This document shows, one piece after another, positions 22,020 to 41,291 of a stretch of DNA of 47,315 nt. The DNA lies in contig JAGOOA010000019.1 of assembly GCA_017992765.1 (NCBI GenBank), positions 1-47,315 on the forward strand. Reading direction: 5' to 3'. The notes under the pieces were generated by a model. That model did not search any database, was not told the DNA's origin, and was given only the letters and a program-made list of their open reading frames with translations. Numbering within the stretch: position 1 is the stretch's first letter; every line of letters begins with the position of its first letter. This stretch comes from Syntrophorhabdaceae bacterium (GTDB lineage: Bacteria; Desulfobacterota; Syntrophorhabdia; Syntrophorhabdales; Syntrophorhabdaceae). The position numbers and the translations under genes are program-made.

Positions 22020-22322
22020 ATGGAAAGGGTTTATGTATCCACGAAAAGAGATATGGCACACAAAAATCCTCAGTCTACGTTTCTGATCGTCGCCTGCCTT
22101 ATTGTATTCGCCCTTGTCTCTTTTTTTATGATGTCCGCCCACAGCCGGCTCCGGGAAGAGCTGATCGCCATGCTCAGGCAAGAGAGGGAGGTCATCGACA
22201 TGAACACCAAGCTCAAAACAGAACTCGCAGGCATTACGCAGGCGAGGATGCTTCAATTAAAGGCAAAAGAGAGGCTTGGACTGAAAAAACCAAAAGATGA
22301 AGAGGTTCTGGTATTGAGATGA
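22020..22322 (+). CDS. ftsL: FtsL-type cell division protein
   Basis: This 100-residue bitopic protein has a short basic N-terminus, one transmembrane helix (about 20-39), then a charged coiled coil (43-85) ending in LGLKKPKDEEVLVL. Size, topology and position between rsmH and the ftsI slot identify it as FtsL, which links FtsQ/FtsB to the FtsWI synthase in model bacteria. Sequence conservation of FtsL is always weak. It starts 11 bases after rsmH with a G-rich Shine-Dalgarno, and its stop overlaps the next gene by 4 bases. Confidence 0.8.
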   Translation: MERVYVSTKRDMAHKNPQSTFLIVACLIVFALVSFFMMSAHSRLREELIAMLRQEREVIDMNTKLKTELAGITQARMLQLKAKERLGLKKPKDEEVLVLR

Positions 22323-23161
22323 ACAAAAGGGCTAACAAAAAGGCCTTTTTCATTTGTGTATTGATTGGATTGATGTACGTTTCCGTAGCGATGAAGCTCC
22401 CTGACAGGCTCGCCATTGGAAGGACTTCGGAACCGCAGGATGCATCGCCGACCGGCCTGAGCGTTTCCATACCAAAACCGGCTCCGGTAAACGCTCCGGC
22501 GCCGGCGAACCTGCAGAAGGCCGAGCCGGTTATCGAGCCTTCCTATTTTGTTGCGATCCCCATCGTCTGTTTCGCGATCAGGGAAGGGCTCATTGAAAAG
22601 GAGGGGCTTATCTTCATAAAGAAAGAGGGCCAGGGCAGCGCCTATTGCAAAAAGCCCCTGGACATACTGAAGGAAAAGGACGAAGAGGGGTTAAAGAGCA
22701 TAGCCAGGATCGTCGGGAAGAAGCAGCTTGTCTCCTTTTTCAAAAAAGAGGGCGTCACGCTCCGCGAAGAACTGCCCCCCCAGGAAGTGGTCCTCGGAAA
22801 GGGGTACGCGATAGAGAAAAACATCATCCTCTCTATGTACAGGAGGAACGTTCCCGAAGATTACAGCGCCCTCTTCCCTTATAGGGTGCACGCAATGGAG
22901 ATCAGGAGGGTAAATGACCGCTTTGAGTTCGGGCACGTCCCTGATGCCCTGAGGGCGCGGTCAGACAGTGAGAAAAATGAATGGGTCATGCCCAGCCTCG
23001 TCAATCTTCCCATCAAGGCAGCCCTTGAAAAGCTGGCGCCGCACACTTCAAGGATAAAGATACACGGGAGCGGCCTTGTTGCGGAACAGCAGCCAAAGGC
23101 CCTTGAAAAGATGAAAGGCGAGATGGAGTGCGTCATCCACGGGAGGTCGTACAAGCAATGA
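22319..23161 (+). CDS. Unrecognised PASTA-domain membrane protein in the ftsI position
   Basis: This 280-residue protein has a basic N-terminus, one transmembrane helix (about 9-26), a proline/alanine-rich linker (44-73), a charged region of unknown fold (about 75-215) and a C-terminal PASTA-like domain (about 223-276: VMPSLVNLPIKAALEKL, then HGSGLVAEQQPKALEKM). The order mimics a transpeptidase FtsI with PASTA, but the dimerisation and transpeptidase domains are absent. There is no SxxK/SxN/KTG set; one SRIK inside the PASTA segment is coincidental. It overlaps ftsL by 4 bases (ATGA) and murE by 4 bases, so it is a regular operon member. It probably sits at the septum with its domain in the periplasm; that is inferred. 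Confidence 0.8.
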   Translation: MNKRANKKAFFICVLIGLMYVSVAMKLPDRLAIGRTSEPQDASPTGLSVSIPKPAPVNAPAPANLQKAEPVIEPSYFVAIPIVCFAIREGLIEKEGLIFIKKEGQGSAYCKKPLDILKEKDEEGLKSIARIVGKKQLVSFFKKEGVTLREELPPQEVVLGKGYAIEKNIILSMYRRNVPEDYSALFPYRVHAMEIRRVNDRFEFGHVPDALRARSDSEKNEWVMPSLVNLPIKAALEKLAPHTSRIKIHGSGLVAEQQPKALEKMKGEMECVIHGRSYKQ

Positions 23162-24609
23162 GACTCAACGACCTGATAAAAAATATGCCCTTCGTCAATA
23201 TAAAGGGCTCCAGAGACCTTGAGATCACGGGGATCACAAAAGATTCACGGGCAGTCGGGGAAGGATATATGTTCTTTGCTACCGGCAAAAGCGGAACGTA
23301 TATAGATGATGCATTGAAGAGAGGGGCGAAGGCCATCGTAACCGACAAAGAACCTGACAGCCCTTTTGAATGCGTGATCACCGTTCAAGACGTCGCGGCA
23401 TCCCTCGGTGAGGCCGCATCAACGTTCCACGGCTTCCCTTCAAAGCAGATGCACGTTGCGGGCATTACCGGGACAAACGGAAAGACAACAACAACGTATC
23501 TCGTTGAGTCTGTTCTGATGAATGCCGGCAAAAAGGCCGGCGTCATAGGGACTATCTCATACAGATATGACGGCAAAGCGCTGAAGGCAGACAACACCAC
23601 CCCCGGGGCCGCCGAAACCCACAGCCTCCTGAAGGATATGCAGCTCGCCGGCGTGGCCTTCGTGGTGATGGAAGTCTCATCCCACGCTCTTGACCAGAAG
23701 CGCGTCGAGGGCGTCGATTTCGATATCGGCATCTTTACCAACCTCACCCATGACCACCTTGACTACCATGGCGACATCGAAAGCTATAAAGGGGCAAAAA
23801 GGCTCCTCTTCGAATATTACCTGAAAAAAAGCACAAAGGAGCAGAAATTCGCGATCCTGAATATTGACGACCCGAGCACGAGAGATTTCGTCGTTGCCGC
23901 GCCGACGCGGACGCTGTCATACAGCACGAAGGGATATGCCGACGCGTACCTTCTCGGCTACAGCGAAAATATCAATGGGCTGGAGCTTGACGTCTCCCTC
24001 CTGGGCAAAAAGATTTCGCTCGCCTCGCCGATGATAGGCGTTTTCAACGCGTCCAACATCCTTGCCGCCTGCCTGTACGGCCACATAACCGGCATCCCGT
24101 ACGACAACATTGGAAAAGGAATAAAGTGCCTGGAGGGTGTCCCGGGGAGGCTGGAAAGGATAGTGAACAAAAAAGGTCTTGCCGTGTTTGTCGACTACGC
24201 CCATACGCCTGACGCACTCGGCAACGTCCTCGCCCTCCTGAACCGCCTTAAAAAGGGAAGGCTTATCCTTGTGTTCGGCTGCGGCGGCGATAGGGATAAG
24301 GGCAAGAGGCCCATAATGGGCAGGATCGCCGCCCACCTTGCGGACCTTACGATCATCACCTCCGACAATCCAAGGACCGAGGATCCGGGGAATATCATCG
24401 CTGACATCATTTACGGCTTCGGCAACGCTCCCTTCAAGGTCATCGAGGACAGGAAAGAGGCCATCAATGAGGCAATAAAGGCGGCGCAGTACGGCGACGT
24501 CGTTCTCGTTGCAGGAAAAGGCCACGAGGACTATCAGCTCGTGGGCGATAAAGTATTGCACTTCAGCGACAGGGAAGTGATCGAGGAGGTCCTCAATGTG
24601 GCTCCTTGA
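23158..24609 (+). CDS. murE: UDP-MurNAc-L-Ala-D-Glu:meso-diaminopimelate ligase
   Basis: This 483-residue Mur ligase adds the third residue of the peptidoglycan stem. It shows the ATP loop GTNGKTTT (105-112), the central NLTHDHLDYHG and DYAHTPDALGN, and D403-N-P-R406, the motif that selects meso-diaminopimelate. So the wall is of the DAP type. The ATG at 23158 is chosen because GGGAGG precedes it and the family N-terminus begins here; a longer frame from 23128 is unlikely. It overlaps murF by 14 bases. Confidence 0.96.
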   Translation: MRLNDLIKNMPFVNIKGSRDLEITGITKDSRAVGEGYMFFATGKSGTYIDDALKRGAKAIVTDKEPDSPFECVITVQDVAASLGEAASTFHGFPSKQMHVAGITGTNGKTTTTYLVESVLMNAGKKAGVIGTISYRYDGKALKADNTTPGAAETHSLLKDMQLAGVAFVVMEVSSHALDQKRVEGVDFDIGIFTNLTHDHLDYHGDIESYKGAKRLLFEYYLKKSTKEQKFAILNIDDPSTRDFVVAAPTRTLSYSTKGYADAYLLGYSENINGLELDVSLLGKKISLASPMIGVFNASNILAACLYGHITGIPYDNIGKGIKCLEGVPGRLERIVNKKGLAVFVDYAHTPDALGNVLALLNRLKKGRLILVFGCGGDRDKGKRPIMGRIAAHLADLTIITSDNPRTEDPGNIIADIIYGFGNAPFKVIEDRKEAINEAIKAAQYGDVVLVAGKGHEDYQLVGDKVLHFSDREVIEEVLNVAP

Positions 24610-27031: not shown

Positions 27032-28357
27032 ATGGAGCTTCCCGATAGCATATTGATCGTTGGACTTGGCGCCTCCGGAATTGCCGCCGCAAAATTCCTC
27101 CACGGAAAGGGGAAGCGCATCGCCCTTGCCGACGAGAAGGACGAGACGGCGCTCGCGCCTGTCCTCAGATCGCTGAACGGGATCGGGTTCACGGGACATT
27201 TCGGCCCCCACAGGGCAGAAGACTTTCTCCGATATCCCCTCATCGTTGTCAGCCCCGGGGTCGACAGCGCGCTGCCTGTCCTGAAAGAGGCCATTGCAAA
27301 AGGGATACGGGTCATCGGCGAGATAGAGCTTGCCTATATGTTCCTCGACGCACCTGTTATCGCGATAACAGGGACAAACGGGAAAACGACGACGACGACG
27401 CTCATCGGGGAGATATTCAAAAAGGCCTTCGGCAATGTCTTCGTCGGTGGAAACATCGGGAACCCGCTCATCAATTATGCCCTTGGAGGAGAAAAGGCGC
27501 AGTATATAATTGTCGAGATCAGCAGCTTCCAGCTTGAGACGGTAGAGGCCTTCAGGGCGAATACGGCGATTCTCCTGAATATCACCGAAGATCACCTTGA
27601 CAGGTACAGGAGCTTCGACGAATACAGGGAAGCGAAATACAGGATCTTTGAGCGCCAGACGGAAGAGGACTATGCGGTGGTCATCGACGGCCTTGAGGCC
27701 CCCGGGGCCGGAAAAGGCAGGCTGCTTTCTTTCTCAACGGCAGGCCGGCCGGAAGAAGGCGCCTTTGCGGAGGGCGGCAAACTCTACGTGCGGTTGAATG
27801 GAAATGAGTTCGTATACGAACGAGGCATTTCCCCGCTCGTGGGCATACACAACACGGAGAATATCCTCGCGGCGCTCCTCACCGCCCATATATATGGCAT
27901 AGGCCAGGCAACGATAGGCGCTTCGCTCCAGGAGTTCAAAGGCCTGCCGCACAGGGTCGAGCTGGTCAGGGAACTGAAAGGGGTCAGGTACTATAATGAT
28001 TCCAAGGCAACCAACGTAGATGCCACAAAAAGGGCCCTGGAAAACATAGAGGGCAACGTGATCCTCATTGCGGGCGGCAAAGATAAAGGCGGCAGCTACC
28101 GGGCGATTGCGGAGGTTGCCCATAAGATCAAGGTCCTTATCGTTATCGGTGAAGCAAAGGAAAAGATCACCGCAGAGCTGGGGGGCCATGTCGTGATCTA
28201 CAAAGAAGAGGATATGGCCGGCGCCGTGCGCGCCGCTTACGAGGCTGCGGAAAGCGGCGATATCGTCCTCCTCTCCCCCATGTGCAGCAGCTTCGATATG
28301 TTTACGGATTACAAACACCGGGGGAACACGTACAGGGAAATGGTGGAGTCTTTATGA
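27032..28357 (+). CDS. murD: UDP-MurNAc-L-Ala:D-Glu ligase
   Basis: This 441-residue Mur ligase has an N-terminal Rossmann loop (VGLGASGIAAAKFL), the ATP loop TGTNGKTTTTT, the NITEDHLDRY segment and YNDSKATNVDAT near the C-terminal domain. It adds D-glutamate to UDP-MurNAc-L-Ala. A GAGGTGAT Shine-Dalgarno overlaps the end of mraY. Its TGA overlaps the ATG of the next gene. Confidence 0.96.
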   Translation: MELPDSILIVGLGASGIAAAKFLHGKGKRIALADEKDETALAPVLRSLNGIGFTGHFGPHRAEDFLRYPLIVVSPGVDSALPVLKEAIAKGIRVIGEIELAYMFLDAPVIAITGTNGKTTTTTLIGEIFKKAFGNVFVGGNIGNPLINYALGGEKAQYIIVEISSFQLETVEAFRANTAILLNITEDHLDRYRSFDEYREAKYRIFERQTEEDYAVVIDGLEAPGAGKGRLLSFSTAGRPEEGAFAEGGKLYVRLNGNEFVYERGISPLVGIHNTENILAALLTAHIYGIGQATIGASLQEFKGLPHRVELVRELKGVRYYNDSKATNVDATKRALENIEGNVILIAGGKDKGGSYRAIAEVAHKIKVLIVIGEAKEKITAELGGHVVIYKEEDMAGAVRAAYEAAESGDIVLLSPMCSSFDMFTDYKHRGNTYREMVESL

Positions 28358-29142
28358 AGAAGATCTGTATCTATATCCTGGCAGCGACCCTATTATACAG
28401 TTTCTTCCGCGAGCTCAACGTTGTCAAGGTGCTGCTCATGCTTGCCGCCCTCGGTGCGATCTTTGCCATAGAACTCATCCCCGCAAAATATATAATGGCG
28501 ATGAAATACCCCGTGATACTCCTTTCATTTGCCGCTACAGCCTGTTTCTTCTTTTATCCGAGGGCGCTTACAGGATACCCGATGGAGATCATCATTACAT
28601 TCCTCGCCTTTTATGGCCTCACCTTTTACATAGCCGGAATGGAAGAGAAAAAGAACGACTTCTTCAAGGAGGTTGCCGCGGTATCGATCCTCTTCATCTC
28701 CTCTTCGTTCAATCTTTTTATTGCAGGCAAGCTGCTTTTTATCGTACCCCTTGCCGTTGCAACGATCCTCTTGCTCTTCATCCTCGACAGGAGCCGCCTT
28801 GCGCCCTTCATCGCAGGATACGCCCTCATCGCCATGATAGTCGCCTACAGGCAGGGCATGCATTTCACGGGCACGGGCCTGCTGGGCCTCAATGACATCA
28901 ACCGGTATATCCTCCTTGGAGCGTCTTTCGTCTTTCTGATCATCGGCTTCGCAGGCTTTACGAAAAAACGCACCTTTGCGACGATACTGCCATTTTTCGG
29001 CTTTCTCTACATTGCGGCCGATATCCTTATGGTCCTTGGATTAAGGTCCTCAACAGGGCTTTTGTATCAACCCGTCATACTGCTCGCCATCGTAAGTCCC
29101 CTTGTCGGGATGATGCTGAAGCCCGAAGGAGAACGCATATGA
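28354..29142 (+). CDS. Unrecognised polytopic membrane protein in the ftsW position
   Basis: This 262-residue, highly hydrophobic protein has about ten candidate transmembrane segments (near 4-18, 25-42, 53-69, 77-95, 107-123, 127-144, 149-166, 184-202, 208-228, 236-255). FtsW usually has ten helices but 360-400 residues; here the large periplasmic loop with the SEDS catalytic aspartate and the conserved C-terminal proline/glycine motifs are absent. Soluble loops are short; the longest (167-183) reads QGMHFTGTGLLGLND. ATGA overlaps with murD and murG show it belongs to the operon. It could be a remodelled SEDS protein, a lipid II-handling protein or a division scaffold; the function is unknown. 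Confidence 0.75.
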   Translation: MKKICIYILAATLLYSFFRELNVVKVLLMLAALGAIFAIELIPAKYIMAMKYPVILLSFAATACFFFYPRALTGYPMEIIITFLAFYGLTFYIAGMEEKKNDFFKEVAAVSILFISSSFNLFIAGKLLFIVPLAVATILLLFILDRSRLAPFIAGYALIAMIVAYRQGMHFTGTGLLGLNDINRYILLGASFVFLIIGFAGFTKKRTFATILPFFGFLYIAADILMVLGLRSSTGLLYQPVILLAIVSPLVGMMLKPEGERI

Positions 29143-32447: not shown

Positions 32448-33348
32448 GAAGGAACTGAAAAGAAAGAGGATAGCAGTGCTCTATGGCGGGAGGTCGTCTG
32501 AGAGGGAGATCTCCATCAAAAGCGGCACCGCCGTCCTGAACGGCCTGACCAGGCTCGGCTACAACGCAACCGGCATCGACGCGGCGAAGGACCTCGTCGG
32601 AAAATTGAAAAAGGAGAAGGTGGACATTGCCTTTATCGCCCTCCACGGAAGGTGGGGTGAGGATGGGACGGTGCAAGGGCTCCTCGAGATCATGGGTATT
32701 CCCTATACCGGTTCAGGCGTTCTTGGTTCATCCATGGCCCTGGACAAAGCCATCATGAAGCTTCTCTTTGATAGTAAGGGAATTCCTACTCCGGCCTATC
32801 TGATCTCCACCTCCTCTCATACCCCGGCATTTCCGCTCCCCTATGTCGTGAAGCCGGCCAACGAAGGCTCCACGATCGGCATATCCATTGTCAGGAAAAA
32901 AAGCGAGGCGGCCCGGGCAATAGCGGCTGCGCGGAAATATGACAGGAAGATCATCGTTGAAGAATACGTCGAGGGAAGCGAAATAACCGTGGGCATAGTG
33001 AACGGAAAGGCCCTTCCCATAATCGAGGTGAGGCCGTCGTCGGGCTTCTATGATTTTCATGCAAAGTACACGAAAGGGATGACCGAATATATTATCCCCG
33101 CAAAGATAAAAAGGTCAGCGGCGAACAGGGCCCGGGGCATAGCGCTGGAGGTTTATAAAACCTTTGAGCTCTCCGGGTGCGCAAGGATCGATATGCTCGT
33201 CAAAGAGGAGGCCCCGCTGGTCATAGACATCAATACATCGCCCGGCATGACGGAAACGTCACTTGTGCCCAAGGCATGGGGGCATCTCGGCGGAACCTTC
33301 GACGGGCTTGTCGAAGAGATCCTGAAGGGGGCAAAGCCAAAGATATGA
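32440..33348 (+). CDS. ddl: D-alanine:D-alanine ligase
   Basis: This 302-residue ATP-grasp enzyme joins two D-alanines for MurF. N-terminal LYGGRSSEREIS, VVKPANEGSTIGIS (ATP lid) and the metal site INTSPGMTETSL are visible. A Ser is present where many homologues have Leu or Ile in NTxPGMTE. It overlaps ftsQ by 4 bases (ATGA). Confidence 0.95.
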   Translation: MDKKELKRKRIAVLYGGRSSEREISIKSGTAVLNGLTRLGYNATGIDAAKDLVGKLKKEKVDIAFIALHGRWGEDGTVQGLLEIMGIPYTGSGVLGSSMALDKAIMKLLFDSKGIPTPAYLISTSSHTPAFPLPYVVKPANEGSTIGISIVRKKSEAARAIAAARKYDRKIIVEEYVEGSEITVGIVNGKALPIIEVRPSSGFYDFHAKYTKGMTEYIIPAKIKRSAANRARGIALEVYKTFELSGCARIDMLVKEEAPLVIDINTSPGMTETSLVPKAWGHLGGTFDGLVEEILKGAKPKI

Positions 33349-34046
33349 AAAGGGCCTTATATATATTGTTTCTCGCACCTCTGTGCGTCCTGTCCATACT
33401 CACCATCGTTTATCTCTTCTCAAAGGACGAGCCGCTCTTCTTTTTGAAAAATGTCAGGATCAGCGGCGTGAGCCAGCTTTCGGAGCGGGACATTGTGGGC
33501 AAGGTAACGCCGTACCTGAAGGAAAGCCTCCTGAAGGTAGATATCGGGAAAATAAAAGAGGCCATTACCGACCATCCCTTCGTGCGGGAGGTCCGCGTAA
33601 AAAGGGCATATCCCTTCTCTGTCGTCATCGACGTGAAGGAAAAGGTGCCGTCGGCGTTATGGGTGAAGAACGACGGCGACGTTTTTGTCCTCGATGAATC
33701 CGGTGAGCCTTACAGGAAATTGGGCAAGGGCGCCATCAAGGGGCTCTTTATCATCAACACGAAAGAAAAAGAAGACGTGGCGAGCATATTCAGAGAGGTA
33801 AATGCGTGGTCAACAGAGGGGATCATGAAAAAAGAGAACCTGTCAGAGGTCTCATACAACGAAGGGAACATAACGCTCTTCGGGCTCGACGATGGTGTAG
33901 AGATCATACTCGGCAAGGAAGATCAGAAAAAAAGGCTCAAACGGGCTGTTGCTGTTCTGGGCGACGCCAGGAAGAGAGGGCTCCTGATAAAATGCATCGA
34001 CGCACGGTTTGAAAAAGGCGCCATAATTCAGGAAAGGAAGGGTTAA
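33345..34046 (+). CDS. ftsQ: Cell division protein FtsQ
   Basis: This 233-residue bitopic protein has one transmembrane helix (about 4-24), a POTRA domain starting FFLKNVRISGVSQLSERDI, and a beta domain to the C-terminus. The start at 33345 (MKRALYIL) is chosen because it forms an ATGA overlap with ddl and gives the normal short cytoplasmic tail; the frame is open further upstream inside ddl. FtsQ recruits FtsL/FtsB and the septal synthase. Confidence 0.9.
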   Translation: MKRALYILFLAPLCVLSILTIVYLFSKDEPLFFLKNVRISGVSQLSERDIVGKVTPYLKESLLKVDIGKIKEAITDHPFVREVRVKRAYPFSVVIDVKEKVPSALWVKNDGDVFVLDESGEPYRKLGKGAIKGLFIINTKEKEDVASIFREVNAWSTEGIMKKENLSEVSYNEGNITLFGLDDGVEIILGKEDQKKRLKRAVAVLGDARKRGLLIKCIDARFEKGAIIQERKG

Positions 34047-34047
34047 C

Positions 34048-35292
34048 ATGTTGAGAGAGGAAGACTTGCTCGTCGGGCTTGATATCGGGACCACAAAGAT
34101 CTGCGTAGTCGTGGGGAAGGTTGTGGACGGCAAGGTCAGCATCATCGGCATCGGCTCCCACCCATCTACCGGCCTTCGGAAAGGCGTAGTGGTCAACATG
34201 GACAGCACCGTAAACTCGATAAAGAAGGCCGTCGAAGAGGCAGAGCTCATGGCGGGCATTACAATAAGCAGTTGCCTCGCCGGGATCGGCGGGGCCCACA
34301 TCAAGAGCTTCAACAGCAACGGCGTCGTGGCGGTGAAGGATAAAGAGGTAAAGCAGGATGATATCATACGGGCCATCGACGCGGCAAAGGCCGTGGCGAT
34401 CCCTGCCGACAGGGAGCTCATCCACGTTATCCCCCAGGAATTCATCGTCGATGACCAGGACGGGATAAAGGACCCTATAGGCATTACGGGCGTAAGGCTT
34501 GAGGTAAAGGTCCATATCGTGACGGGCAGCATATCCTCGGCCCAGAACGTCATCAAATGCTGTAAGCTCGCCGGGCTTGAGGTTGACGACATCGTTCTGG
34601 GGCAGCTCGCGTCTTCGGAGGCGACGCTTACCCCTGAGGAGAAAGAGATCGGGGTCGCCCTCGTCGACACGGGAGGCGGCACCAGCGACATCGCCATATA
34701 CTCCAACGGGAGCATCGCCTACACAGCGGTCCTTCCCTTCGGGGGAAACAACATCACGAACGATATCGCGATCGGCCTCAGGACGCCCCTCGAAGAGGCG
34801 GAAAAGATCAAGAAGAAATACGGCTGCGCCTTTGCGGGCATGATCGGCGCCAACGAAACGATAGAGGTACCGAGCGTCGGCGGAAGGAAGCCAAGGACGC
34901 TCCAGAGAAAGACCCTCGCGGATATTATTGAGCCGAGAGTGGAAGAGATATCTTTATTGATCTACGAAGAGATCAAAAAGTCCGGGCTCGAACGGCTCCT
35001 CGCATCCGGGGTAGTCCTTACCGGCGGCTGCGCAAACCTCGAGGGCATCCCCGAACTGGTCGAGAATATCTTTAACCTCCCTTCAAGGCGGGGTTATCCG
35101 ATAGGCGTCGGCGGCCTTACCGATGTTGTGAACAACCCTATATATTCTACAGGGGTAGGGCTCCTGTTGTACGGCTTTAAAAACGGCAAGACAAGCAAGC
35201 GGGGGTATGGCCAGGGGAGGTCGATCAAAAAACTGTTTAGCGGTCAAAAATTACTCGGCAGAATGAGAGAATGGTTTAAAGAAATTTTTTAG
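34048..35292 (+). CDS. ftsA: Cell division protein FtsA
   Basis: This 414-residue actin-like ATPase anchors FtsZ to the membrane. Phosphate-1 [14 protein letters not shown], phosphate-2 [12 protein letters not shown] and the adenosine motif [11 protein letters not shown] are present. The C-terminus ends in [12 protein letters not shown], an amphipathic membrane-targeting helix. A GGAAGGG Shine-Dalgarno precedes the start, one base after ftsQ. Confidence 0.96.
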
Positions 35293-35299
35293 GAGGTGC

Positions 35300-36469
35300 A
35301 TGGTGAGTGCAATGTTTTATATGGACGAGGGCAATGGTTTTGCAGCAAAATTGATCGTCGTGGGGGTCGGGGGAGGAGGTTGCAATGCCCTGAACAACAT
35401 GGTCGACGCAGGCATCCAGGGCGTCGAATTTCTGGCGGTCAACACGGACGTCAAGTCGCTCAACATGTGCAAGGCCCCTATCAAGATCCAGGTCGGCACC
35501 AAGCTGACGCAGGGTCTCGGGGCCGGAGCAAATCCGGAGGTGGGAAAAAAGGCAGCCCTTGAGGACGTCGACAAGATCAAGGACCACCTGAAGGGCGCCC
35601 ATATGGTCTTCATCACCTGCGGGCTCGGCGGCGGCACCGGCACGGGGGCCTCTCCGGTCATCGCCGAGATATCGAGAGAGATCGGGGCACTCACCGTAGC
35701 CATCGCCACCAAACCTTTTGCCTTTGAGGGAAGGGACAGGATGACGCAGGCCGAAAGCGGCGTCACCCAGTTGAAAACGCGCGTTGACTCCCTGATCACG
35801 ATCCCCAACCAGAGGCTCCTTTCTATCGGCGGCAAGCATATGACCATCATGGAGGCGTTCCTCAGGGCCGACGAAGTACTTCTCAACGCGGTGCGAAGCA
35901 TATCAGACCTTATCGTAGGCTCTGGCCACGTCGTCGTCGACTTCGCAGACGTGAAGACGATCATGAGCGAGCGCGGAATGGCGATCATGGGCATCGGCGA
36001 GGCAACCGGCGACACCCGGGCGAGGGATGCTGCCCAGAAAGCAATATCAAGCCCTCTTCTTGAAGATATATCGATACACGGGGCACGGGGAGTGCTCATA
36101 AACGTAACGGGGAACACGGATATGACCCTAAGCGAGGTCAACGACGCATCAACGCTCATCCAGGAACAGGCCCATGAAAATGCAAAGATCATATGGGGGC
36201 TCGTGTATGATGAAAAGATGGCCGATGCCATCAGGATAACCGTTATCGCCACCGGCTTTGAAGAACAGGTCCAGGCAGAGCAGGGCGGCGCCGAAGCGAT
36301 CACGGAGAGCAGGCTTTTTGGCGAAGAGAATATCCCGCCGTTCATAAGGAAGAAGGTGGCCATCGACTACAAGGTCGACTATAAGGATATCAAGCAGAAA
36401 AGCGACAGCGCCGAGATAGACGATGACAGGTATGACATCCCTACGTTCCTCAGGAAGCAGGCGGACTGA
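35300..36469 (+). CDS. ftsZ: Cell division protein FtsZ
   Basis: This 389-residue tubulin-like GTPase forms the Z-ring. The GTP site [12 protein letters not shown], the tubulin signature [13 protein letters not shown] and the T7 loop [13 protein letters not shown] are intact. The conserved C-terminal peptide YDIPTFLRK, which binds FtsA, ends the protein after a short linker. The AGGAGG at 35291-35296 is only 3 bases from the ATG at 35300, so the GTG at 35303 (6 bases away) may be the real start. It is the last gene of the dcw cluster. Confidence 0.97.
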
Positions 36470-40454: not shown

Positions 40455-41291
40455 CTAATGTGCGGGGTTGTTCCCGGTGACTGGCTGGCTTTCCCCGTTT
40501 TCCTTCTGTTCCAGCACTTCATCATATTCCGGCACCACGATGCCCCGCCTCACCATGATGTTATAGATGATCTGTGCCCGCTTCTCCACGTACCGGGAAG
40601 AGCCGTCAAGCTTGTACTTCCTCGGGTTCGGCAGGACAACTGCCAGTTTGGCCGCCTCCTGTGCTGTCAGAAGCGCGGCGGGTTTGCCGAAATAACGGAG
40701 CGAGGCCATCTCGGCGCCGAAGATGCCTTCGCCCCATTCAACCACATTGAGGTAGAGCTCAAGTATCCTCCGTTTCGATAGCGTCCGCTCGATCCTCCAC
40801 GTGATGATCGCCTCTTTCAGTTTCCGTATCGGGTTCTTGTCAGGCGTAAGGTAGAGATTTTTTGTGAGCTGCTGGCTTATCGTGCTCCCTCCGAATTTGA
40901 ACTTCCCCTTTTCAACGTTCTTTTCCAGGGCATTCTGGATCGCGTCAAGGTCAAAGCCGTGATGAGACCAGAACTTGTCGTCCTCCGCGATGATCACCGC
41001 CTTAAAAAGGTAGGGAGAGATCTCCTTGAGCGAAACCCATTTTCTCTGTATTTTTATCTTCTTCCCTTTCTGTTTCCATTCCTGCTCACGGTATTCCATG
41101 AAAGATGTCTTGCCGGGGTTCTGCCTTTTCAGCTTCGCTACGTCCGGGTAGAAAAAGTAAAGACCCACGAAGCCTATCGCCGCGAGAAACCCAAGGATAA
41201 AAACAGCTTTTATAAGCCTGCCGATGACCCCTTTGTTCTTGTTTCGTTTCATAAGGGCATTCTGTTCACGATATGCGGTTTCGTTCTCCAT
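40455..41291 (-). CDS. mtgA: Monofunctional peptidoglycan glycosyltransferase
   Basis: This 278-residue bitopic protein has a transmembrane helix (about 26-47) and a periplasmic GT51 domain. It polymerises lipid II into glycan strands. The catalytic glutamate E103 is in IAEDDKFWSHHGFD; GGSTISQQLTKNLYL and KRRILELYLNVVEWG complete the motifs. No transpeptidase domain follows. It is the only recognisable glycan polymerase in the window, which is relevant because the dcw cluster lacks FtsW. An alternative start is M14. Confidence 0.93.
   Translation of the reverse strand: MENETAYREQNALMKRNKNKGVIGRLIKAVFILGFLAAIGFVGLYFFYPDVAKLKRQNPGKTSFMEYREQEWKQKGKKIKIQRKWVSLKEISPYLFKAVIIAEDDKFWSHHGFDLDAIQNALEKNVEKGKFKFGGSTISQQLTKNLYLTPDKNPIRKLKEAIITWRIERTLSKRRILELYLNVVEWGEGIFGAEMASLRYFGKPAALLTAQEAAKLAVVLPNPRKYKLDGSSRYVEKRAQIIYNIMVRRGIVVPEYDEVLEQKENGESQPVTGNNPAH

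What the first reader, a model, noticed from the sequence alone, without database searches (positions are those of the whole stretch)
22319..23161. A transpeptidase-less PASTA protein occupies the ftsI position of the dcw cluster
Seen: between ftsL and murE, where the septal class B penicillin-binding protein is normally encoded, lies a 280-residue bitopic protein with a Pro-rich linker, an unknown middle region and a C-terminal PASTA-like domain. It lacks the pedestal and transpeptidase domains and any SxxK/SxN/KTG set. Known: many deltaproteobacterial FtsI proteins end in PASTA. Inferred: it may be a reduced FtsI descendant or a new PASTA scaffold that recruits a transpeptidase encoded elsewhere. 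ATGA overlaps on both sides argue that it is functional and co-translated.
Basis: partly seen in the sequence, partly recalled or inferred. Interest (0 to 1): 0.87.

Follow-up and report, generated by a model that had tools for sequence, protein, structure and literature searches.

The report
Miniature dead FtsI and FtsW pair
In a whole order of bacteria, the two enzymes thought to build the dividing wall of nearly every bacterium appear to have shrunk into small, catalytically dead relics that are still carefully preserved, so these cells probably build their division wall with another enzyme and keep the relics as scaffolding.

Summary
The 280-aa protein at 22319-23161 is real and conserved in all 46 genomes held of its order (Syntrophorhabdales), in the same dcw slot, under purifying selection. 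It is not an assembly error and not a new PASTA scaffold. Its middle is a shrunken transpeptidase fold: Foldseek's top PDB hits are all class B PBPs, and VIA-align gives Z about 11 over about 150 residues. SxxK, SxN and KTG are erased and the pedestal is replaced by a linker. The PASTA tail is FtsI's.

The finding is larger than reported. The ftsW slot (28354-29142) holds a 262-aa protein without a Pfam match. It is predicted as a 10-helix SEDS fold (RodA/FtsW Z about 19) without the large catalytic loop. Each genome otherwise has one RodA-PBP2 pair, in the mreBCD operon, and a universal class A PBP. Both septal synthases have therefore decayed into preserved pseudoenzymes.

Elsewhere in the phylum FtsW was lost at least twice more, and every FtsI inspected there is catalytically dead too.

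Best model (inferred): a non-catalytic FtsWI shell keeps its divisome contacts while another synthase, most likely the class A PBP, makes septal wall, as shown for C. difficile. Prior papers note missing ftsW in some relatives; I found none reporting dead FtsI or a miniature FtsW.

The parts
22319..23161 (+). Pseudo-FtsI ('ftsI stub'), 280 aa: miniature, catalytically dead FtsI in the ftsI slot of dcw
22325..22393 (+). N-terminal membrane helix of the stub (residues 3-25)
   Evidence: AlphaFold2 model
22394..22522 (+). Pro/Ala-rich linker (residues 26-68) where FtsI has its pedestal; length varies among orthologues
22523..22966 (+). Shrunken transpeptidase-fold domain (residues 69-216); SxxK site replaced (EPSYFVAIP against EPGSTFKVF), SxN and KTG absent
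22979..23149 (+). C-terminal PASTA domain (residues 221-277) homologous to the FtsI PASTA tail
28354..29142 (+). Pseudo-FtsW: 262-aa SEDS-fold protein in the ftsW slot between murD and murG; 10 predicted helices, large extracytoplasmic loop 4 reduced to ~14 residues; no Pfam match
22020..22322 (+). FtsL/DivIC-like protein (weak Pfam DivIC, E 0.0014), ATGA overlap with the stub
23158..24609 (+). murE, ATGA overlap with the stub (the ORF list gives an upstream GTG at 23128)
33345..34046 (+). ftsQ (POTRA + FtsQ_DivIB_C)
34048..35292 (+). ftsA
35300..36469 (+). ftsZ
40455..41291 (-). Monofunctional peptidoglycan glycosyltransferase (MtgA-like, Transgly E 2.7e-54), a possible but not required septal polymerase

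Best explanation
The protein is a miniaturised FtsI that has lost its pedestal and its catalytic site but keeps the membrane anchor, a collapsed transpeptidase fold and the PASTA tail. Its partner, the 262-aa protein in the ftsW slot, is a miniaturised FtsW that has lost the SEDS catalytic loop. Shown here by sequence and prediction: both are conserved across the order and under purifying selection; the genome has no other FtsW or FtsI; the only SEDS-bPBP pair is RodA-PBP2 in the mreBCD operon. Inferred: the two proteins form a non-catalytic FtsWI shell that still occupies the FtsWI position in the FtsQLB/FtsA/FtsZ divisome. The shell senses or binds septal peptidoglycan through PASTA and positions or gates a different synthase, most likely the universal class A PBP (with or without MtgA), which makes the septum.
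For: Order-wide conservation in the same slots: stub in 46 of 46 genomes, pseudo-FtsW in 45 of 46 and 37 of 37 good-quality genomes; dcw gene order otherwise intact. One SEDS per genome in 43 of 46 and one PBP_dimer protein in 45 of 46; in the window genome these are rodA-mrdA beside mreBCD with intact motifs. Fold of the stub: Foldseek top hits PBP2x E 3e-5 and PBP3 transpeptidase domains; VIA-align Z 10.6-11.6 over ~150 aa. Fold of the W-slot protein: RodA 6bar Z 19.5 over 251 aa, FtsW 8bh1 Z 19.3, next WaaL 13.2, unrelated <=10. FtsI-specific register by hhalign (135 columns, E 0.0038, 3 of 150 block shuffles reach it; none against PBP2) and FtsW (E 0.011, 2 of 150). PASTA tail from FtsI, E 6e-15. 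dN/dS 0.09-0.23 for both genes, against 0.08-0.15 for neighbours. In other families without ftsW, all 12 FtsI-slot proteins inspected have also lost SxxK/SxN/KTG, and the tree gives at least three separate losses. An aPBP of about 614-690 aa is present in 45 of 46 genomes, missing only from a 66%-complete one, and a transglycosylase-domain protein in 19 of 20 other ftsW-less genomes. Precedents: C. difficile has no canonical FtsW/FtsI and uses aPBP PBP1 for septal wall (PMC10693644); dead E. coli FtsW mutants still reach midcell and bind FtsI (PMC8765783); PASTA domains of S. aureus PBP1 bind peptidoglycan and are needed for division apart from transpeptidation (PMC9426605).
Against: Sequence similarity of the middle domain and of the W-slot protein to FtsI/FtsW is marginal (empirical p about 0.02 each), so homology rests on predicted folds plus synteny. 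The position that I align by eye with the SEDS catalytic Asp keeps Asp in 14 of 22 W-slot proteins, so residual activity in some species is not excluded. No interaction, localisation or essentiality data exist. RodA-PBP2 could be the septal synthase instead. L,D-transpeptidases were not searched.
Confidence: 0.72

Rival explanations
1. Same dead FtsWI shell, but the single RodA-PBP2 pair does both elongation and septation, recruited to the septum by the shell.
For: RodA-PBP2 is the only SEDS-bPBP pair in nearly all genomes, with intact catalytic motifs. The shell derives from FtsWI and could have kept contacts that a paralogous pair might use.
Against: The pair sits in the mreBCD operon like a dedicated elongasome. 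An aPBP is universal, and the one tested organism without FtsWI uses its aPBP (PMC10693644). One 99%-complete relative (G152) shows no SEDS at all, if its assembly is right.
Confidence: 0.3
2. The stub is an unrelated PASTA scaffold that replaced ftsI in its slot.
For: No Pfam or PDB sequence match apart from PASTA; middle-domain sequence similarity to FtsI is marginal.
Against: Predicted transpeptidase fold with PBPs as all top hits, FtsI-specific PASTA, colinear register with FtsI, and graded intermediates of FtsI decay in other families.
Confidence: 0.08
3. The W-slot protein is still an active SEDS-like polymerase, and the stub is its non-catalytic activator.
For: SEDS fold; Asp at the position that I align by eye with the SEDS catalytic Asp in 14 of 22 orthologues; strong conservation.
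Against: That Asp is S, E, G, P or Q in the other orthologues, the QPSExxK motif of RodA is not kept, the large loop between helices 7 and 8 is gone, and there is no PF01098 match.
Confidence: 0.1
4. Both genes are decaying relics without function.
For: Both are truncated relative to FtsI/FtsW, and one orthologue of the W-slot gene (G018) carries an in-frame TAG.
Against: dN/dS about 0.1-0.2, like murE/murD/murG; intact in nearly all other genomes across the order; translational overlaps kept.
Confidence: 0.03

Closest known systems
FtsI / PBP3 / PBP2x (septal class B penicillin-binding protein with C-terminal PASTA)
   Same: dcw slot between ftsL and murE, single N-terminal membrane helix, transpeptidase-type fold, PASTA tail
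   Different: No pedestal, a collapsed transpeptidase domain of about 150 aa, no SxxK/SxN/KTG; 280 aa instead of about 650
FtsW / RodA (SEDS glycosyltransferases)
   Same: ftsW slot between murD and murG, 10-helix fold, Z about 19 to RodA and FtsW
   Different: 262 aa instead of about 370; large loop 4 reduced to ~14 aa; catalytic motifs not conserved; no Pfam SEDS match
FtsWI-independent vegetative division of Clostridioides difficile (PMC10693644)
   Same: No canonical FtsW/FtsI pair for vegetative division; aPBP makes septal wall there; RodA-PBP2 kept for elongation
   Different: In C. difficile the dcw genes are intact enzymes specialised for sporulation (SpoVD/SpoVE); here the dcw pair has become pseudoenzymes in a diderm lineage
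ftsW-less Desulfobulbaceae and Thermodesulfobacteria (PMC7873302, PMC8871954)
   Same: ftsW missing in members of the same broad phylum
   Different: Those papers report absence only; PMC7873302 assumes FtsI activity at the septum. Here a reduced SEDS protein is retained and FtsI is shown to be motif-dead
PASTA function of S. aureus PBP1 (PMC9426605)
   Same: A division role for the protein and its PASTA domains separate from transpeptidation, with PASTA binding peptidoglycan
   Different: PBP1 is still an enzyme; the stub has no catalytic site

Membership tests
FtsI (septal class B PBP) | dcw position between ftsL and murE | tested here: met
FtsI (septal class B PBP) | single N-terminal membrane anchor | tested here: met
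   helix 3-25 in the model, conserved in the alignment
FtsI (septal class B PBP) | pedestal / PBP_dimer domain (PF03717) | tested here: not met
   only one PF03717 protein per genome, at mrdA; no match in 26 stubs; alignment gap
FtsI (septal class B PBP) | transpeptidase fold | tested here: met
   predicted structure only, truncated:
FtsI (septal class B PBP) | catalytic SxxK, SxN, KTG motifs | tested here: not met
   26 of 26 orthologues
FtsI (septal class B PBP) | C-terminal PASTA (in this phylum's FtsI) | tested here: met
   (22 of 26, best 1.1e-7); hhalign E 6e-15 to FtsI PASTA
FtsI (septal class B PBP) | penicillin binding / transpeptidase activity | not testable with these tools
   needs protein
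SEDS (FtsW), for the protein at 28354-29142 | dcw position between murD and murG | tested here: met
SEDS (FtsW), for the protein at 28354-29142 | 10-helix SEDS fold | tested here: met
   predicted structure only:
SEDS (FtsW), for the protein at 28354-29142 | sequence family PF01098 | tested here: not met
SEDS (FtsW), for the protein at 28354-29142 | large extracytoplasmic loop 4 with invariant catalytic Asp; QPSExxK | tested here: not met
   loop ~14 aa; Asp in 14 of 22 at the position aligned by eye, Lys absent
FtsWI-less division with aPBP (C. difficile type) | no catalytic FtsW/FtsI in the genome | tested here: met
FtsWI-less division with aPBP (C. difficile type) | an aPBP always present | tested here: met
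FtsWI-less division with aPBP (C. difficile type) | aPBP required for septal wall synthesis | not testable with these tools
   needs knock-down or inhibitor experiment

The most novel reading that the evidence does not exclude
The septal synthase and the divisome scaffold can be separated. In this order the whole FtsWI complex survives as a paired, miniaturised pseudoenzyme shell that only organises and gates the septum, while catalysis has moved to a class A PBP. The same catalytic death of FtsI, always with loss of FtsW, arose independently at least three times in one phylum.
Probability: 0.5. Interest if true: 0.93.

Novelty: new variant of a known kind. Interest (0 to 1): 0.86.

Why it matters
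FtsW and FtsI are treated as the near-universal septal wall synthases and as drug targets. An order in which both have become small, conserved pseudoenzymes is a natural separation-of-function experiment. It shows which parts of FtsI (anchor, collapsed domain, PASTA) and FtsW (helical core) are worth keeping once catalysis is gone, and it makes the question of what FtsWI does besides catalysis directly testable. The repeated coupling of FtsW loss with FtsI catalytic death argues that FtsI crosslinking at the septum depends on FtsW. It also predicts that these bacteria divide in the presence of FtsI-specific beta-lactams.

Tried and rejected
Assembly error or truncated ftsI: rejected, same architecture in 46 genomes. 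Functional FtsI/FtsW elsewhere: none found with PF00905, PF03717 or PF01098 in the genome or the order, except an extra accessory SEDS in two genomes (G015, G023), with a nearby catalytic bPBP confirmed in G015. Pfam/NCBIfam/PDB sequence searches of both proteins: nothing beyond PASTA. The pseudo-FtsW profile outside the order: no convincing match. The IQ-TREE run failed on thread count and was replaced by FastTree. Literature searches for a prior report of dead FtsI/FtsW in this group returned none. My first annotation table used off-by-one coordinates for the mre/PBP references and was redone.

Full report
What is there. The ORF at 22319-23161 is as described: 280 codons, ATG overlapping the ftsL stop (ATGA), stop overlapping the murE start (ATGA). 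Its order is Syntrophorhabdales: relatives fetched by sequence are titled Syntrophorhabdus sp., Syntrophorhabdaceae and Syntrophorhabdales; the GTDB phylum would be Desulfobacterota (own knowledge). A search of 99 relatives found orthologues in every genome of the genus, family and order (46 of 46 with the window's own), all in the ftsI slot of loci inspected, and hardly anything outside the order except PASTA tails of ordinary FtsI proteins of about 610-690 aa. This excludes an assembly error.

What the protein is. PASTA is sub-threshold in the window protein, but 22 of 26 orthologues match it, and the PASTA region aligns to the FtsI tail of the same phylum with hhalign E 6e-15, and not to PBP2. 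AlphaFold2 on 25 orthologues gives a confident domain from about residue 68. Foldseek against the PDB returns PBP2x first (E 3e-5), then PBP3 transpeptidase domains and class D beta-lactamases. VIA-align gives Z 10.6-11.6 over about 150 residues of the transpeptidase domain. An alignment with phylum FtsI proteins puts the stub's conserved EPSxFxxxP helix ungapped on the FtsI SxxK helix (EPGSTFKVF): the Ser position is Y/F/L/S/V/N and the Lys position A/S/T/P in the 26 orthologues. Two stubs have Ser at the first position but lack the Lys. SxN is replaced (K-D-E, with Asp121 and Gly124 invariant), and KTG with its strand is gone. hhalign finds the same register over 135 columns (E 0.0038; 3 of 150 block-shuffled profiles score as high; nothing against PBP2). 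The pedestal is replaced by a Pro-rich linker of variable length. It is therefore a miniature, motif-dead FtsI.

The second half of the finding. Between murD and murG, where ftsW belongs, lies a 262-aa polytopic protein (28354-29142) with no Pfam match, conserved in 45 of 46 genomes and 37 of 37 good-quality ones. AlphaFold2 (pTM 0.84) gives ten helices, with the loop between the seventh and eighth reduced to about 14 residues. VIA-align ranks RodA and FtsW structures first (Z 16.4-19.5 over 235-257 residues), then WaaL (13.2), and unrelated folds at 10 or below. Sequence similarity to FtsW is only suggestive (hhalign E 0.011; 2 of 150 shuffles). By eye, the position of the catalytic Asp of FtsW (D297 in E. 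coli; PMC8765783) corresponds to residue 181, which is Asp in 14 of 22 orthologues and S/E/G/P/Q in the rest; the Lys of the QPSExxK motif seen in this genome's RodA is absent. Both slot genes show dN/dS of 0.09-0.23, close to murE, murD, murG and ftsL (0.08-0.15).

No other septal synthase. The window genome has four PF00905 matches: PBP2 (mrdA), two class A PBPs and a sub-threshold match in a 308-aa protein that looks like a D-Ala-D-Ala carboxypeptidase. It has one SEDS protein, RodA, next to mrdA and mreBCD, with intact motifs in RodA, PBP2 and both class A PBPs. Across the order there is one SEDS per genome in 43 of 46 (a fragment in G041, an extra accessory SEDS in G015 and G023) and one PBP_dimer protein in 45 of 46. 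A class A PBP of about 614-690 aa is found in 45 of 46 genomes, cut by contig ends in two (missing only from one that is 66% complete), and MtgA-like proteins in most.

A phylum-wide pattern. In a sample of 148 phylum genomes most families have two SEDS proteins, but several have one or none. I fetched the dcw clusters of 15 such genomes from nine families. ftsW is missing in all of them: murD-murG gap 20-352 bp (901 bp in one), against 1109-1207 bp in ordinary relatives and about 785 bp in Syntrophorhabdales, and no SEDS match in the cluster. In the 12 of these whose ftsI-slot protein I aligned (324-666 aa), SxxK, SxN and KTG are all gone. A tree of ten dcw genes places the losses in at least three lineages: one clade of eight families (support 1.0), one family sister to a normal taxon (0.99), and Syntrophorhabdales. 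In this sample FtsW absence and FtsI catalytic death go together. All but one of 20 such genomes keep a transglycosylase-domain protein; the exception is a fragmented assembly.

How it probably works. Shown: conservation, synteny, purifying selection, motif loss, absence of alternative FtsWI. Predicted: folds. Inferred: the pair forms a non-catalytic FtsWI shell held by FtsQLB and FtsA/FtsZ, with PASTA contacting peptidoglycan, while the universal class A PBP makes septal wall. Precedents: C. difficile lacks canonical FtsW/FtsI and divides with its class A PBP (PMC10693644); catalytically dead E. coli FtsW still localises, recruits FtsI and FtsN and binds FtsI (PMC8765783); the PASTA domains of S. 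aureus PBP1 have a division role separate from transpeptidation and bind peptidoglycan (PMC9426605). PMC8765783 places the FtsW activation interface between the pedestal of FtsI and ECL4 of FtsW; exactly these two elements are missing here, which fits co-reduction of an interacting pair. The main rival is dual use of RodA-PBP2.

Novelty. Earlier papers note that ftsW is lost from the dcw cluster in Thermodesulfobacteria (PMC8871954) and is absent in four Desulfobulbaceae genomes, where FtsI activity was still assumed (PMC7873302). I found no report of motif-dead FtsI or a miniature FtsW in this group; the library holds only open-licence papers. I rate this a new variant of a known kind: division without catalytic FtsWI is known, but a retained pseudo-FtsWI pair is, as far as I could find, not.

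Limits. Homology of the two slot proteins to FtsI/FtsW rests on predicted folds plus position plus weak sequence signal (strong only for PASTA). No function was tested.

Noticed in passing
L222-L239 (dcw loci of G062, G073, G139, G162, G183, G184, G175, G129, G096, G059, G152, G195, G072, G161, G103): Nine other families of the phylum lack ftsW in dcw; 12 of 12 ftsI-slot proteins inspected have lost all catalytic motifs (e.g. YELGELAGFL in place of FEPGSTFKVF).
   Followed up: yes
L233:3201-4172 and L234 around 14808 (G072, G161): In family f30 (complete 1.6-1.8 Mb genomes) the ftsI slot holds a 324-332 aa protein with no match to FtsI, PBP2 or stub profiles; it may be a third, independent miniaturisation.
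   Followed up: partly
L240:3946-5979 (G015 contig C51) and G023 contig C91: Two genomes of one genus carry an extra SEDS gene; in G015 it lies close to a catalytic class B PBP (SxxK and KTG intact), a protein-kinase fragment and a sigma-like factor, outside dcw. The pseudo-FtsWI pair is retained there too.
   Followed up: partly
L227, L229, L230, L232, L237: murE and murF are fused into one ORF of about 1000-1050 aa in family f17 and in G184.
   Followed up: no
L222-L234: ddl was not recognised in the dcw cluster of most ftsW-less families, whereas Syntrophorhabdales and most normal relatives keep it there.
   Followed up: no
G152 (family f17, 99% complete): No SEDS protein at all was found, not even RodA; G087 and G134 likewise gave none but are more fragmented.
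   Followed up: no
L106:2882-3600 (G018): The pseudo-FtsW gene of one genome is split by an in-frame TAG; pseudogene or sequencing error.
   Followed up: no
window 40455-41291 (-): A monofunctional transglycosylase gene lies a few kb beyond the dcw cluster on the other strand; MtgA-like genes occur in most genomes of the order.
   Followed up: partly
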